The position numbers and the translations under genes were made by a program. The notes under the pieces were generated by a model that worked only from the letters and a program-made list of their open reading frames with translations, did not search any database and had not been told where the DNA came from. Shown in pieces: positions 40,447 to 64,000 of a DNA stretch of 64,000 nt (within the stretch, counting starts at the first letter, position 1; each line of letters opens with the position of its first letter). The stretch comes from Morchella semilibera (Eukaryota > Ascomycota > Pezizomycetes > Pezizales > Morchellaceae), in contig WBVU01000022.1 of the NCBI GenBank assembly GCA_009192285.1, positions 480,728 to 544,727 of the forward strand, read 5' to 3'.

Positions 40447-42120
40447 TTGCCTCTGGCTCGCGCGATCGACTAGTAAAAAGTATAGAAAATCGCGCCCGTA
40501 CTTCTAATTCTAGCTTGAATTGTCAGATTCTTCTTGTCTGCCCCGATTATGTACAGATGTCCATTTCTCGTTATTAGACAGTCTTGAGCCACGTCTAGCA
40601 ACGCTCGGAAGATGATACCGGAAAGATCCTGAGAGATATTCCGCTTTACTAAGATGCCTTATAAATTTGTTAAAGGAGTGGACTTTGTCAATTGCAATGG
40701 TTGAACCCCCCCCGAAAGGGGAGGAGGAAAAAAAAATCTAGTCTTCATTGTTAACGACTCGTATCCGGATCCAGCTAACACTAACGCTAATATTAAGGTT
40801 TCGTTAAATTTACAGTAGCTATATATATATATATAGCAGATCGGAGAAACTATATATATATGCCGCCCGCTGTAGTTGGGAAATTCGAAATTCGATACCT
40901 ACTCTGACTTGAATACCTATCTGCTTGTCTATATATTAGCTAAAACCAGCTAGGAGAGGAATTATGTAGCTATATATACTGTCCAATCTATTTAAGTTGA
41001 TCAATCGTCAAAACCTCTGGTATGAGTATGTAAAGGTAGTTGTACCATATGAGTACTTGAGGGTTCAAGCTTAAGGATGATAGCAGTTAAACCTGACTGT
41101 GCCAGTAGGTGTTTGTTCTTCCATGTCATTGGCAGCTCCCTTCCCGGTACTCCTCTATCTCGGGACTAGTTCTTTGTCTGTTTAACGTATAGTATAAAAT
41201 GCAGCTCTAACTAATATATATGCTTCGTGATTACAACGAGGAGGCTTATACTATTGAGATATATAATATAGCTATATAGTGTTATGCATATCGCTGCCTA
41301 GCGTTTACTGGTGATGATAGGGACTTGGGGTATCACCGGTGGTACTACGGTTCTAACTTAAGGGTTGCCTAATAGCCGTGTGAACCGGTTTTTGGTTTGG
41401 AGTGAACTATAACCTATCGAGAGCTTCGGTTTCCCCCGGCCACCTCCTAGTGATGCCTGGTTTTCTGGGGGGCCTTGGTGGGTGTATGGAAAAGGGGAGA
41501 GGGAGCCTTAAATACCCCTAACTAGTACCTCCAGGCAGTTACGCCCTCCCTTGCATCTAATTGCCAGAGCCGGAGGCGGGGTAGGTAACGAGATTTGTAT
41601 AAACATAGAGACGAGTGATGCCCTGTGATGGGGGCTTGGCGTTTAGGTCCTCCCAACTGGGGGATAGGTTGAATTGTAGCTATATCTTTTTTTTTTCATC
41701 GAGCAGTGCCTTGAAATAATTTTATGAAGTTGTTACTAAATATTGGTCATGACGGTATCGTGAGAAGTATAAAAAGCAATAATAGTAATAAAAAGGAGCT
41801 AAAAAAATCCGCGGGACTAGTACTTCTCCAAAAAGACGCACACTATATAAAGGGAAAAATTACATTTGGAGAATGGTATGAAATCCTCTTAGGTCCCCCG
41901 TATACGCGGTTTGGCTACAGGAAATCTTGTTGACAAAGTTCTGAGTTTCAGTCCTCGTAGCTCCCCAACTTCCCTCGAATCCACAAAAACCCATAACGAT
42001 GCTCCACGCACAAACAGTCGACTACCAAACACCACCGAACCGCCAGAACACTAGAAAAAAAGGAACATGCAGTAGAGAGACACCCAACACAAGCGACCTA
42101 TTTCAGAAAAGGCCGAGACA

Positions 42121-42169
42121 GATAGAGACAGAGAGAGATAAATAAAAAGAGAGAGAGAAGAGAGAGAGA

Positions 42170-42244
<75 letters not shown>

Positions 42245-42263
42245 GAGGGAGGGAGAGAGAGAG
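42121..42263. repeat. (GA)n microsatellite ending in poly-G
   Basis: About 140 bp of almost pure AG dinucleotides, with a 12-nt guanine run near 42235-42246, then more GAGA. It lies 110 bp beyond the stop codon of the NACHT-ankyrin gene, within its likely 3' flank. Confidence 0.9.
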
Positions 42264-42374: not shown

Positions 42375-45300
42375 TCATCGCATTGCTTTTCGTATACGTA
42401 GGAGAGATATCATATCTGGCCGTCGATCTCGCAAAGCGACTCCCAGTGCCGTGTGCCCATCATTGTCCATTTTGTTGAGATCTATCCCCTCTGCGCTAAG
42501 TAGAATGCGCAAGAGTTCCTCATTGCGGTTCTTCGTAGCCAGCAATAGTGGTGTGTTGCCATCGCTGCCAGCTTTGTTCACGTCCACGCCGTCCACAGCC
42601 AGGAGAAAGCGGACAGTCTCTGTACGGCCCAGCCCCACAGCATGAAGCAGTGGTGTCCGGTCGTGCTCCCCCGCAGCTCTGTTCACATCCACTCCCTTCG
42701 CGGCCAAGAGCATGGTCAGGATTGCATCGCCCCCCCACTTTGCTGCCACTGTAAGTGGTGTATCACCGCCGGGGACCGTTTTATTTACGTCCACACCTTC
42801 CGCAGCTAACAGGACTTGCACAATATCTTGGTACCCTCCTCGCACAGCATAGGCCAATGGTGTGAGCGTATGAGCACCAGCGATTCTATTGACATCAATT
42901 CCTTCCGCAGCCAATAACATACACACAATATCCTTTGCGCCCTGAATGGATGCGCGCGTTATTGGTGTGCCGTCGGAGTTAGCTGCCTGGTTCACATCCA
43001 CAACTCCTCCCATCGAAAGGATCATGCGTATTATATCCTTATTGCTAATATACACAGCTCTTGCCAGTGCTGTGTCGCCCTCAAAAGATGTTTTGTTTAT
43101 TTCCACTCCTTTCGCGGCCAACAGAACCCGCACTACCTCCAGTTTGTTATAACGCACGGAATTTAGCAGCGGTGATCGACCAGAGTTATCAGGCTTATTC
43201 ACATCCACTCCTTCTGTCGCCAATAGAACCCGAACTACCTCCGCGTAGCCCATCTCCGAAGATGCGGATAGCGGTGAACGGCCGAAGTTGTCGGTCATAT
43301 TCGCGTCCACTCCCTCCGCCGCCAATAGAATCCGCACTGCCTCGAAATGGCCTCTCTCCGAAAGAACGAGTAGCAGTGGGCGGCCGGAGTCGTCGGCCCT
43401 ATTCACATCCACTCCTTTCGCCGCCAATAGAATCCGCAATACCCCCAAATGGCCATTCTCTGAAGAAGCGAGCAGCGGTGAGCGGCCGGAGCTGTCGGCC
43501 CTATTCAAATCCACTCCTTTCGCCGCTGATAGAATCCGGACTACCTCCACATGGCCATTCTCTGAAGAAGCGAGCAGCGGTGAGCGGCCGGAGCTGTCGG
43601 CCCTATTCACATCCACTCCTTTCGCCGCTGATAGAATCCGGACTACCTCCACATGGCCACTCTCTGAAGAAGCGAGTAGCGGTGAGCGGCCGGAGTCTTC
43701 GACCCTATTCACATTCACTCCCTCCGCTGCTAACAGAGCCTGCGTGGTCTCCACATGACCGTTCGCCGCAGAAATGAATAACGCTGAGCGGCCGGAGCTG
43801 CCGACCCTGTTCACATCCACTCCTTTCGCCATCAATAGAATCCGAACCACGTCCACATGACCATTCCCCGAAGAAATAAATAGCGGTGAGCGGCCGGAGG
43901 TGTCGGTCTTGTTCACATCAGCCCCCGCAGCCAGCAACATCTGCACCACACCCGCATGGCCATTCTCCGAAGAAATAAATAGCGGTAAGCGGCCGGAGGT
44001 GTCGGTCTTGTTCACATCAGCCCCTGCAGCAAGCAACATCTGCACCACCCCCGCATGGCCATTCTCCGAAGAAATAAATAGCGGTGAGCGGCCGGAGGTG
44101 TCGGCCTTGTTCACATCAGCCCCCGCAGCCAGCAACATCTGCACCACCCCCGCATTGCCATTCCCCGAAGAAATAAATAGCGGTGAGCGCCGGCCGGAGG
44201 TGTCGGTCTTGTTCACATCAGCCCCAGCAGCCAGCAACATCTGCACCACCCCCGCGCTACCATGCATTACAGCCTTTGTGAGTAGCGTATCACCATCGGC
44301 TCCCATTTCGTCCAGACGAGCCCCTTCCCTGGAAAGCACCGCTTTTATTGCCTCCCCATAGTGATTGATCGCGGTTTTGTTCAGCGGTGTGTGATATTTG
44401 CTGCCTCCCCCCATATCAGAACTCCCCACAGCCAGTAACATCTGTATAACCTCCTCATTACCACATCCCAAAGCTTTCCACAGCAGGGTCTTATATTTGC
44501 GCCCCGCCTTCTTCATATCCATTCCTTGTACCTCCAATAGCATCCGCACTATCTGCGCATAACCCTTCTCCACAGCTACGCATAGAGGCGTATTACCTCT
44601 GCTATCCTCCTTGTTTAAATCCACTCCTTTCGCGGTAAGCAGGGTGCGCACAATGCTCTCGTTGTTTAGCAAGGTGGCACACAAGAGCGGGGTTTCTCCA
44701 TGGACTCCGCATGGACTGGTACTATTAATTTGCGAAATATCCCCTGATAGGATTTTCTCGACAACGTCTTGCAGCCCGTAATAACACGCCGCCCATAACG
44801 GGGTGAAACCGATAGATACACCTTCCTGAAAAATCCGTTTCTGGAGTGCCACTCTGGCCCATCTACCAAAGGCTGCTGAGGAGTTCATGAATTCCATGCA
44901 CGTCTCAATGCTTCGGGCACCTGACAATCGGAAATGAGCAAACCAGCTCGAAGCCGAGTATTCCCGAAGCTCCCAGAGTAGAGAATGCTGATCCACATCA
45001 ATATGATCACATATAAATGATCTCATGCAAATTTCGGCCATTCTTCCATGGCCCAAATCTGGGACGAATTCGGCGTGTCTTTGTAAATATTCTTGTACAG
45101 AGAAGTGAGCGAATCGGAGAGTGTCAAGCTTCTCATCATAAACAACGAGGTTCTGACAGACGTCGAGGACGTCTTGCAACACCAACTCAAGCTGACCCCT
45201 ATATGGAGAATCTTTTCCCCGCTCCACTGCCAAAGACTGGATTATTGTCTCGGGTGAACAAGGGGTCTCGGCGAAGAATATCCAGCTCAAGACTCTCTTG

Positions 45301-60839: not shown

Positions 60840-63800
60840 TACAGGAGTATGCCATTTGAGGAAGGCACGGTTCCCAGCACTTAGTTGAGCAGCATATATA
60901 TAGCACTGGGGAAGAAATGGGGGGACGGGAAAGAACACACCTGAAAATCAAGCACCTGGATGAGCACGGCACCGAGCCATGGGGAGGGTTCCGAGCACTT
61001 AGCACTGCAATGGGGGGGGCGCACCGAGTACCTCGTTGAGCATGGGACTGAGAAAGGCTTTGGGGACGTCGCCGAGCACCGCACGGTTTATGCCTGAAAA
61101 TCGAGCACCTAGGTGACGGCATCGAGGGAGGCACCTGGGATAGTTCCAAGAACCTCGTTGAGAATGGGGCCAAGGAGGGAATCGGGGACGGCGACAAGTA
61201 CGCAGCCGATTTCTAAAAATCGAGCACCTAGGTGCATGGCACCGGGGGGGGGGGGTTGGGCCCTGCGTAGAGCCCCAGGCCAAATCGAGCACCCTCATGA
61301 GGACGGCACGAGGAAGGCACTTGGGACAGTTCCGATCACATAGTTCAGAACGACATCAAGAGAGGAATCGGGGACGGAAAAAAGATCAAGGATTCCGGGA
61401 GCTAGATGAGCACGGCATCGAGGAAGGGAAGGGGACGACATCGAGGAGGAAGGATGGGGCCGAGCACCCCATTGAGCATGGCACCGAGGAAGGCCTTGAT
61501 GGCGCCGAGCACACAGTGCCTGAAAATCGCGCACTAGCACGAGGAAGTCCACGCCCAAACATTGAGTACCTAGGTGAGTACGCCATCAGCACATGTGATA
61601 GTTCCGAGCACCTAGTTGACGAGATCACTGAGGAAAGGGGAAGGAGAAAGGAGGACGGGGCCGGGCACCTCATTGGGTACGGCACTGGGGGGGGGTCTGG
61701 GTACCGGGCACGCACCATACGACTGAAAATCGGGCAGCTAGGTGGGCACAGCATCGGGGAACGTGGACAGCGCCGAGGAAGGGGGATAGAGCCAGGCATC
61801 TCGTTGGGTTCGTTGGGTATGGCACCGAGGAGGGCCCTAGTGATAGCACCGAGCATGCATTCCACGCCTGAAAATCGAGCGGCACTGAGGAGGGCTTCGG
61901 GGACATCAGCAAGACTTCATTTATCTCCTGATGTCCCCTGAGCATCAGGAGACTCAAAAAATATTCAGGAGTCTCAGGAGACTCTCAGGAGACTTGGGAG
62001 ACTGTTGGGAGACTCCAGTCACAAGTTGAGTTTGCTGATGGAAGGCGCCGAGCACTTCGTTGAGCATGGCACCGAGCACGCCACGCCCGAAAATTGCGCA
62101 CCAGATGGGCACGGCATTGAGGAAGGCACCTGAGACGGTTCCGAGCACCTAGTTAAGCTCAGCACTGAGGAAAGGGGCCAGCGCCGGAGAAGGGAGACGG
62201 CGCCGAGCACTCCACGCCACCCAAAAATTGAACACTAAGGTGAGCACGCTATTGAGAATGAGCACCTAGTCCCTGCGTGAATTGACTCCTAGGATACGTT
62301 TAAATCACCTAAATCGAGTGCCTAGTGGAGTACGGCACCAAGGAAGACCCTGGGAACGGCGTTGAACACCCAGTCCACGCCCGAAAATCCTGCACATGAG
62401 GCATTGAAGAAGGAATCTAGGGCGGTTCCGAGCACCTATTTGAGCACGGCACTGAGGAAGAGGGACGGCGCTGAAGAAGGGGGGACGGCGCTGAAGAAGG
62501 GGGGACGGCGCTGAAGAAGGGGGGACGGCGCTGGGCACCGGTGAGTATGGCACTCACGAAGGCGCCGGTGACGGCGCCGAGCACGTACTATGCTCGAAAA
62601 TTGAGCACCTGGCTTAGCACCGCTCGAGGAAGGAATAGGGACGGAGGCGAGCATGCAGCCGATGCCTGAAAATCGCGCACTAGACGAGCATGACATCGAG
62701 GAAGGCACCTTAGCACAGCATAGGGACGGGGCCAACGCCGGGGAAGGGCGACGGCGCCGAGCACGCAGTCCACGCCCGTAAATCGAGAACCTAGATGAGT
62801 ACGGCACCGACGAAGGGGGGCGGGGCAAGGAGGACAGGGCCGAGCACCTCGTTGAGCATCGCACTGAGGAAGGCCCCTGCACCCAAAATCCAAATTACAC
62901 ACAGTCCCCAAAGATCGAGCACCTAGATGAGTATGCCATATCTTCCTATGTTCCCATTCCTATACTAATGTCTATACAGGTCCATTCACACCCAAAAAGA
63001 TGCTCAAGCCTGCACCTACGATTCCGGGCACCTAGATTAGCACGGCATCGAGGAAGGGACGGCGTTGAGGAAGAAGGACGGGGCCCAGCACCCCGTTGAT
63101 TATTCGGGGAAGGCCTTGGTGATAGCGCCGAGCACGCAGCTCACGCCTGAAAATAGCGCACTAGACGCACGGCCACAGCATCGAGGAAGGAACCTGGGAT
63201 GGTTCCGAGGATGCGGTCCACGCCCGGGGGTTGGGCGCCTAGGTGAGCACGCCATCAAGGAAGGCACCTGGGATAGTTCCGAGCACCTAGCGGACGAGTT
63301 CATCAAGGAAAGTAGAAGGCGCCGAGAAAAGAGGACGGGGCCGCTCACGCACTATACGCCTCAAAATCGGGCAGCTAGGTGGGCACGGCATAGGGGAAGG
63401 GGGACAGCGCCGAGGATCTCGTTGAGTGTTGCACCAAGGAAGGCCCTAGTGATAGCACCGAGCATGTCTTCCACGCCTGAAAATCGAGCGGCACTGAGGA
63501 GGGCTTCGGGGAAGGCGCCGAGCACTTCGTTGAGCATGGCACCGAGCACGCAGACCACGCCTGAAGATCGAGCACCTAGAGTACGGCATCGAGGAAGGAA
63601 TTGGGACGGCCACCCCCCAACGTATAGGATAGAACACGCTTTAAATATCGCTGAAACCTACTCTTAGTAGAGCATGGCACCGAGAAAGGTTTAGGGGACG
63701 GTGCCGAGAATGTAGCACACACGAAGATCGAGCATCTAGTTGGGCACCGCATCTAGGAAGGGGGACACCGAGGAAGGAGAACGGAACCGAACAAGTCGTT
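60840..63800. repeat. Degenerate subtelomere-type repeat array
   Basis: About 3 kb built from variants of a few phrases in the same orientation: GAAAATCGAGCACCTAGGTGAG, GCACGGCACCGAGGAAGG, CACCTGGGATAGTTCCGAGCACCTAG and GGGGACGGCGCCGAGCACG. They recur every 50-130 bp with many substitutions and indels. Nested tandem repeats occur at about 61934-62012 (CAGGAGACTC) and 62457-62532 (a 20-bp unit, GGGGGGACGGCGCTGAAGAA, about three times). Several 80-214-codon frames are open on both strands because stops are rare in the repeat. It lies directly before the telomere-like array, the usual place of subtelomeric repeats. Confidence 0.8.
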
Positions 63801-63811
63801 GAGCACGCCAC

Positions 63812-64000
63812 TAGTTAGTTAGTTAGGGTTAGTTAGGGGTTTAGTTAGGGTTAGTTAGGGTTAGTTTAGGGTTAGTTAGGGTTAGTTAGGGTTAGTTAGG
63901 GTTAGTTAGGGGTTAGTTAGGGTTAGTTAGGGTTAGTTAGGGTTAGTTAGGGTTAGTTAGGGTTAGTTAGGGTTAGTTAGGGTTAGTTAGGGTAATTAGG
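63812..64000. repeat. Telomere-like array of TTAGTTAGGG
   Basis: About nineteen copies of a 10-bp unit, TTAGTTAGGG, run to the last base. Minor variants (GGGGTTTAG, GTTTAGGG, GGGGTTAG) lie mainly near the inner end. The G-rich strand runs 5'-3' toward the right edge, the orientation of a right chromosome end. The canonical mould repeat is TTAGGG; here each TTAGGG is preceded by an extra TTAG. Whether the window edge is the true chromosome end cannot be told from the sequence. Confidence 0.85.

What the first reader, a model, noticed from the sequence alone, without database searches (positions are those of the whole stretch)
63812..64000. Non-canonical telomere-like repeat TTAGTTAGGG at the window edge
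Fungal telomeres of this group are normally TTAGGG. Here a regular 10-bp TTAGTTAGGG unit runs to the last base, in the correct strand orientation and right after a subtelomere-type array. If it is the real telomere, the telomerase RNA template would have to carry a CCCTAACTAA-like sequence, or the enzyme must slip regularly. If not, it is an unusual telomere-adjacent satellite with canonical telomere beyond it.
Basis: partly seen in the sequence, partly recalled or inferred. Interest (0 to 1): 0.75.

Follow-up and report, generated by a model that had tools for sequence, protein, structure and literature searches.

The report
Ten-base telomere of a morel
The window ends in a real chromosome end of what is most likely a morel mushroom, built from a ten-base repeat (TTAGTTAGGG) instead of the usual six-base TTAGGG; the repeat was already in print for this genome, but the RNA that encodes it has yet to be proven.

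Summary
The array is real and is the telomere, not a satellite. The window is the right end of contig C18 of a 56.76 Mb, 23-contig genome whose size, contig count, longest contig and N50 match the published Morchella crassipes assembly. An outward-facing TTAGTTAGGG array ends 27 of 46 contig ends; none ends in a TTAGGG array. Seven further arrays examined inside contigs all stop at an assembly gap on their outward side, as if telomeric contig ends had been joined by scaffolding. Of 424 units in 32 arrays, 345 are 10 nt long, 8 are 6 nt and 2 are 14 nt. That fits a telomerase template encoding all ten bases, not slippage on a TTAGGG template. One TERT gene without stops in its RNA-binding domain is present.

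The motif is not new: the M. crassipes paper (2020) gives a rotation of it for this genome, and a 2026 M. sextelata paper gives another. Yarrowia yeasts have a similar 10-mer, TTAGTCAGGG.

New here is a tentative telomerase-RNA locus on C2 with a 15-nt template-like tract, CUAACCCUAACUAAC, two bases after a strong hairpin. It has no telomerase Rfam hit and no convincing three-way-junction hairpin, so it is only a lead.

The parts
63812..64000 (+). Telomeric array (TTAGTTAGGG)n, G-rich strand running outward to the contig's last base
   Evidence: Sequence; Tandem Repeats Finder period 10, 17.2 copies; same array at 27 of 46 contig ends
60901..63811 (.). Subtelomeric stretch beside the telomere, rich in degenerate words such as GAGCACCTAGTTGAGCACGGCACCGAGGAAGG; left border inexact
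   Evidence: Read by eye. Tandem Repeats Finder reports only two short arrays in it (61965-62015 and 62446-62533). No match of 150 bp or more at E 1e-10 or better, same orientation, in the other 45 contig ends of 3 kb

Best explanation
This is the native telomere of a fungus whose assembly statistics match Morchella crassipes M10M26. Telomerase (TERT plus a telomerase RNA) adds 10-nt units TTAG-TTAGGG. The simplest mechanism is a telomerase-RNA template that spans one full 10-nt unit plus a short realignment stretch, for example 5'-CUAACCCUAACUAAC-3', which is the human and Aspergillus fumigatus template CUAACCCUAAC with four more bases (UAAC) at its 3' end. After each round the product end GTTAG re-anneals to the 3'-most CUAAC and ten bases are added; re-annealing to the inner CUAAC would give a 6-nt TTAGGG unit, which is rare. 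Shown: the array, its place and orientation at contig ends, the predominant 10-nt length, a TERT gene. Inferred: that the template encodes all ten bases, and the register choice. Tentative and not included in the confidence: the telomerase RNA locus at C2:3238180-3238194 (+).
For: Array at 27 of 46 contig ends, all 224 double units in the 46 end pieces facing outward and 0 inward. 345 of 424 units are 10 nt, against 8 of 6 nt and 2 of 14 nt. Length-10 units rise from 156 of 206 in the inner halves to 189 of 218 in the outer halves, as expected if new repeats are added at the tip. TERT on C11: Telomerase_RBD E 4.2e-48, no stops inside, and RVT_1 in a following reading frame. The same 10-mer in other rotations is reported as the telomere of M. 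crassipes and M. sextelata.
Against: The telomerase RNA is not proven; no transcript, read or BAL31 data were available. 19 of 46 ends carry no terminal array; 7 of these 19 share subtelomeric sequence with array-bearing ends and look truncated, the other 12 do not. 79 of 424 units are not 10 nt, mainly 11 nt (32); sequencing error and enzyme slips cannot be told apart. A 2018 paper describes M. importuna ends as (TTAGGG)n.
Confidence: 0.88

Rival explanations
1. Regular slippage: a canonical TTAGGG template (CUAACCCUAAC) whose enzyme stutters on TTAG once per repeat.
For: TTAGTTAGGG is TTAG plus TTAGGG; a few 6-nt (8) and 14-nt (2) units exist among 424.
Against: 345 of 424 units are 10 nt; stuttering should give a broad spread of 6, 10 and 14.
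Confidence: 0.06
2. A telomere-adjacent satellite, with canonical TTAGGG repeats missing from the assembly beyond it.
For: Arrays stop at contig ends, so bases beyond are unseen; assembled arrays are short, 67-248 bp.
Against: The 27 terminal arrays all stop in the 10-mer or variants of it and none passes into a TTAGGG array. Seven more arrays stop at gaps inside contigs, still in the 10-mer or a close variant. TTAGGG x3 occurs only 13 times in the genome.
Confidence: 0.03
3. The C2 locus is not the telomerase RNA but one of many short interstitial telomeric tracts; the true telomerase RNA lies elsewhere.
For: Short tracts are common: 41 and 16 hits for two left-boundary 13-nt patterns, against 6 and 4 for the reversed patterns. 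No telomerase family at the locus in Rfam. No convincing P6.1-like hairpin and no Sm-like site beside a 5' splice site. With flanks of 150-300 nt only 8 of 15 tract bases stay unpaired. The best of 40 was picked after the fact, and tracts of the other phases were not tested.
Against: 0 of 1500 random positions in the same loci match it on both hairpin strength and an unpaired tract; 22 and 44 match on one. The tract has exactly the expected 10 + 5 form, and the hairpin stops 2 nt before it, as mostly seen in Aspergillus (PMC3603654). Seven ORFs of the locus have no Pfam hit.
Confidence: 0.65

Closest known systems
Telomeres of Morchella crassipes M10M26 (PMC7014384) and Morchella sextelata (PMC13208314)
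   Same: The same 10-mer in other rotations: TTAGGGTTAG / CTAACCCTAA and AACCCTAACT. The first is almost certainly this very assembly (passages).
   Different: In the passages seen, the unit is given without analysis of unit length, template or gap-abutting interior arrays. The telomerase RNA was not named there.
Yarrowia clade telomeres (TTAGTCAGGG; TTNNNNAGGG)
   Same: 10-nt unit, TT and AGGG kept with four bases between; TTAGTTAGGG differs from the Y. lipolytica unit by one base (passages and one section).
   Different: A yeast lineage, distant from morels; there the telomerase RNA is known and was tested by deletion. The shared form is probably convergent (inference).
Aspergillus telomerase RNAs (PMC3603654)
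   Same: CUAACCCUAAC-type templates with 3-6 nt end repeats and a boundary helix mostly 2 nt upstream; longer units exist (TTAGGGTCAACA in A. oryzae) (abstract and Results section).
   Different: Homology of the C2 candidate to these RNAs was tested only through Rfam, with no hit; the candidate lacks a recognisable three-way-junction hairpin.

Membership tests
Telomerase-maintained telomere | Tandem G-rich repeat at chromosome ends, G-rich strand outward | tested here: met
   27 of 46 contig ends; 224 outward, 0 inward double units in the 46 end pieces
Telomerase-maintained telomere | TERT gene in the genome | tested here: met
   Telomerase_RBD on C11, E 4.2e-48, no stops inside; RVT_1 in the same locus; a second match on C5 holds 3 stops
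Telomerase-maintained telomere | Telomerase RNA with a matching template | tested here: inconclusive
   Candidate at C2:3238180-3238194; not proven
Telomerase-maintained telomere | Physical terminal position (BAL31, raw reads) | not testable with these tools
   No reads or bench data held
Telomeric repeat reported for Morchella | Unit is a rotation of TTAGGGTTAG / AACCCTAACT | tested here: met
   By inspection of the letters against PMC7014384 and PMC13208314
Ascomycete telomerase RNA (C2 candidate) | Template longer than one unit, with the same bases at both ends | tested here: met
   CTAACCCTAACTAAC begins and ends with CTAAC
Ascomycete telomerase RNA (C2 candidate) | Boundary helix just upstream and a single-stranded template | tested here: inconclusive
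   -22.9 kcal/mol, 2 nt upstream, 15 of 15 unpaired with 60- or 100-nt flanks, but 8 of 15 with 150-300 nt
Ascomycete telomerase RNA (C2 candidate) | Three-way junction with P6.1; Rfam telomerase match | tested here: not met
   Only weak hairpins of 3-4 pairs; no telomerase family up to E 10. A genome-wide RF02462 search did not complete
Ascomycete telomerase RNA (C2 candidate) | Pseudoknot with U-A.U triples | not tested
   U-rich and A-rich stretches lie about 320 and 390 nt downstream; no pseudoknot was computed

The most novel reading that the evidence does not exclude
C2:3238180-3238194 (+) is the template of the morel telomerase RNA, 5'-CUAACCCUAACUAAC-3', which arose by a four-base duplication at the 3' end of a CUAACCCUAAC template. 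This telomerase then uses the outer of two identical CUAAC landing sites in almost every round (345 ten-base against 8 six-base units), so that register choice during translocation becomes directly measurable.
Probability: 0.35. Interest if true: 0.55.

Novelty: already known. Interest (0 to 1): 0.33.

Why it matters
The motif itself is in print, so the finding is mainly a confirmation. Three points have use. First, morel chromosome ends should be sought with the 10-mer; a (TTAGGG)n label, as in the 2018 M. importuna paper, may hide it. Second, TTAGTTAGGG is a near twin of the Yarrowia 10-mer in a distant fungal class, a likely convergent gain of four bases inside TT-AGGG. Third, if the candidate template is right, the enzyme has two identical 5-nt landing sites and almost always uses one, which primer extension could measure. 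For the assembly, arrays that abut gaps inside C1, C2, C19 and C23 suggest false joins, also in two scaffolds that were taken as complete chromosomes.

Tried and rejected
Rejected: a chance repeat; a satellite with TTAGGG beyond it; regular slippage.

An early count of 6-nt TTAGGG units (20; 26 in inner against 2 in outer halves) was mostly an artefact of where arrays were cut at their inner edge. The recount between G-runs gave 7 exact TTAGGG units and 8 of length 6, which is used here.

Telomerase RNA search. Left-boundary patterns, hits and hits of the reversed control: phase 6, 41 and 6; phase 2, 16 and 4; phases 3+7 mixed, 101 and 85; 4+8 mixed, 154 and 117; 5+9 mixed, 278 and 200; 5 exact, 49 and 1; 8 exact, 35 and 10. 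Searches list only the first 100 places each. Phases 0 and 1 were not searched. 40 loci with tracts, nearly all of phases 6 and 2, were fetched; three hold long arrays and were dropped from the hairpin test, leaving 40 tracts in 37 loci, of which L105 and L107 are copies of one another. Rfam scans of the 40 loci up to E 1 gave no telomerase family. A scan for an Sm-like site close to a 5' splice site gave one weak hit, in L082, not pursued. Identification by rRNA was tried and not answered.

Paper searches: TTAGTTAGGG, 14 papers, 13 listed, no title or abstract start presents it as an organism's telomere; six other spellings, 162 papers, 40 listed, one opened; Morchella with telomere and genome assembly, 16 listed, three opened; Tuber or Pezizomycetes with telomere terms, 15 of 89 listed, none opened on that account; Morchella with telomerase, 15 of 18 listed, no telomerase RNA in a title or abstract start.

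Full report
What is there. Bases 63812-64000 of the window are a run of TTAGTTAGGG: period 10, 17.2 copies, 95% matches by Tandem Repeats Finder. The window is C18:480728-544727 of a genome with 56,756,124 bases in 23 contigs, and it ends at the contig's last base. The exact double unit occurs 195 + 168 times in the genome; the pattern read backwards 0 times.

Which organism. Its 23 contigs, 56.76 Mb, longest contig of 7,341,407 bases and N50 of 2,999,225 (my sum over the lengths) match the Morchella crassipes M10M26 assembly: 56.7 Mb, 23 scaffolds, longest 7.34 Mb, N50 3.00 Mb (PMC7014384, passages). That paper says that eight scaffolds, LG1-LG8, have telomeres at both ends with the unit TTAGGGTTAG or CTAACCCTAA, a rotation of TTAGTTAGGG. 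Here C1-C8 are exactly the contigs with arrays at both ends. The paper counts three scaffolds without telomeres; by my cut-off four contigs (C15, C16, C20, C22) have none. The M. sextelata paper reports AACCCTAACT, again a rotation, at both ends of 16 of 26 pseudochromosomes and at one end of the other 10 (PMC13208314, passages). So the motif is already known in Morchella.

Is it the telomere. I fetched the first and last 3 kb of all 23 contigs. A terminal array is present at 27 of 46 ends, 67-248 bp long; two of the 27 are identical copies on duplicate contigs (C9/C10, C12/C13). All 224 double units in the 46 pieces face outward, 0 inward. No end carries a terminal TTAGGG array. TTAGGG x3 is found 13 times genome-wide, two of them inside the C12 and C13 terminal arrays. 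Of the 19 ends without an array, 7 (C14_R, C15_L, C15_R, C16_L, C20_L, C21_L, C22_L) share subtelomeric sequence with array-bearing ends, so they look truncated; the other 12 do not.

Arrays inside contigs. Seven long arrays were examined: C1 at 1.46, 4.01 and 5.77 Mb, C2 at 4.06 Mb, C19 at 2.20 and 4.06 Mb, C23 at 0.19 Mb. In 7 of 7 the outward side of the array stops at N bases, from a single N to a longer run. They are best read as telomeric contig ends joined by scaffolding. In C1 and C2 the four are all the interior arrays with three or more double units in the listing. C3-C23 were not surveyed: of 363 double units, 224 lie in end pieces, 78 in these seven arrays, 8 in short tracts that I saw, and about 53 were not placed. 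A shorter tract such as L110 on C1 has no gap beside it, so true interstitial tracts exist too.

Template or slippage. In 32 arrays (25 terminal and 7 interior; C10_L and C13_R dropped as copies) I measured 424 units from G-run to G-run: 345 are 10 nt (329 exact), 32 are 11 nt, 8 are 6 nt, 3 are 9 nt, 2 are 14 nt and 34 are of other lengths, many of them two units with a broken G-run. A canonical template with stuttering should give a broad spread of 6, 10 and 14. Length-10 units rise outward, from 156 of 206 to 189 of 218, as expected if new repeats are added at the tip. The genome encodes TERT on C11, with Telomerase_RBD (no stops inside) and RVT_1; a second, broken match lies on C5. A template encoding all ten bases is the best reading; the template sequence itself is inferred.

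Telomerase RNA lead. Many short telomeric tracts lie in the genome, so a template cannot be found by matching alone. I fetched 40 loci with tracts and tested 40 tracts in 37 of them for a hairpin ending 0-4 nt upstream and for an unpaired tract. L078 (C2:3236979-3239379) came first by hairpin: tract CTAACCCTAACTAAC, -22.9 kcal/mol, ending 2 nt upstream, 15 of 15 bases unpaired. Six of the 40 tracts are fully unpaired. Of 1500 random positions in the same loci, 22 reach that hairpin score, 44 have 15 unpaired bases, and 0 have both; the score was chosen after seeing the data. Against it: with flanks of 150-300 nt only 8 of 15 bases stay unpaired; Rfam shows no telomerase family there (E up to 1, up to 10); no convincing P6.1-like hairpin and no Sm-like site beside a 5' splice site appeared in the 2.7 kb downstream. 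Seven ORFs of the locus have no Pfam match at E 0.01. Aspergillus telomerase RNAs have a boundary helix mostly 2 nt from the template, and A. fumigatus has the human template CUAACCCUAAC (PMC3603654, Results read). I give the candidate about 0.35.

Known relatives. Yarrowia lipolytica has TTAGTCAGGG (PMC10100673, passages), and its clade, one species excepted, fits TTNNNNAGGG, read by its authors as a four-base insertion in TTAGGG (PMC6746865, passages and one section). TTAGTTAGGG fits that form. Most Pezizomycotina are reported to have TTAGGG. The M. importuna 2018 paper describes (TTAGGG)n ends (PMC6164635, passages); in view of the later reports this may be a simplification, which I could not test. 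Other papers were seen only as passages (PMC4299874; PMC6115765; PMC10767889).

Noticed in passing
L113, L114, L115 (C1), L116 (C2), L087, L090 (C19), L096 (C23): Seven long telomeric arrays inside contigs stop at N bases on their outward side, which suggests false joins, including in C1 and C2, scaffolds published as complete chromosomes.
   Followed up: partly
C9/C10, C12/C13, C21/C22 ends (L025/L026, L028/L029, L045/L046, L048/L049, L054/L055): The 3-kb ends of C9 and C10, and of C12 and C13, are 100% identical beside the arrays; the left ends of C21 and C22 are 99.97% identical. The assembly seems to hold duplicate scaffolds.
   Followed up: no
C22:1661590-1676241 (L117 at its centre): Short telomeric tracts lie in mirror order (spacings 427/426 and 972/971), like two subtelomeres facing each other; the 801 bases fetched at the centre hold no gap and no array.
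   Followed up: partly
C5:306657-306866 (L064): A second Telomerase_RBD match with 3 stops inside, probably a broken TERT copy; short telomeric tracts lie nearby at C5:305998, 317316 and 319315.
   Followed up: no
whole genome G000: Many short isolated telomeric tracts of 13 nt or more; for example 41 hits of one boundary pattern against 6 of its reversed control. They could be repair scars or protein-binding sites (inference).
   Followed up: partly
window 43165-44255: Tandem repeats of 99-102 bases, about 33-34 codons per unit; looks like coding ankyrin-type repeats (recalled, not tested).
   Followed up: no
window 42115-42263: A GA dinucleotide run of about 75 copies, 85% matches.
   Followed up: no
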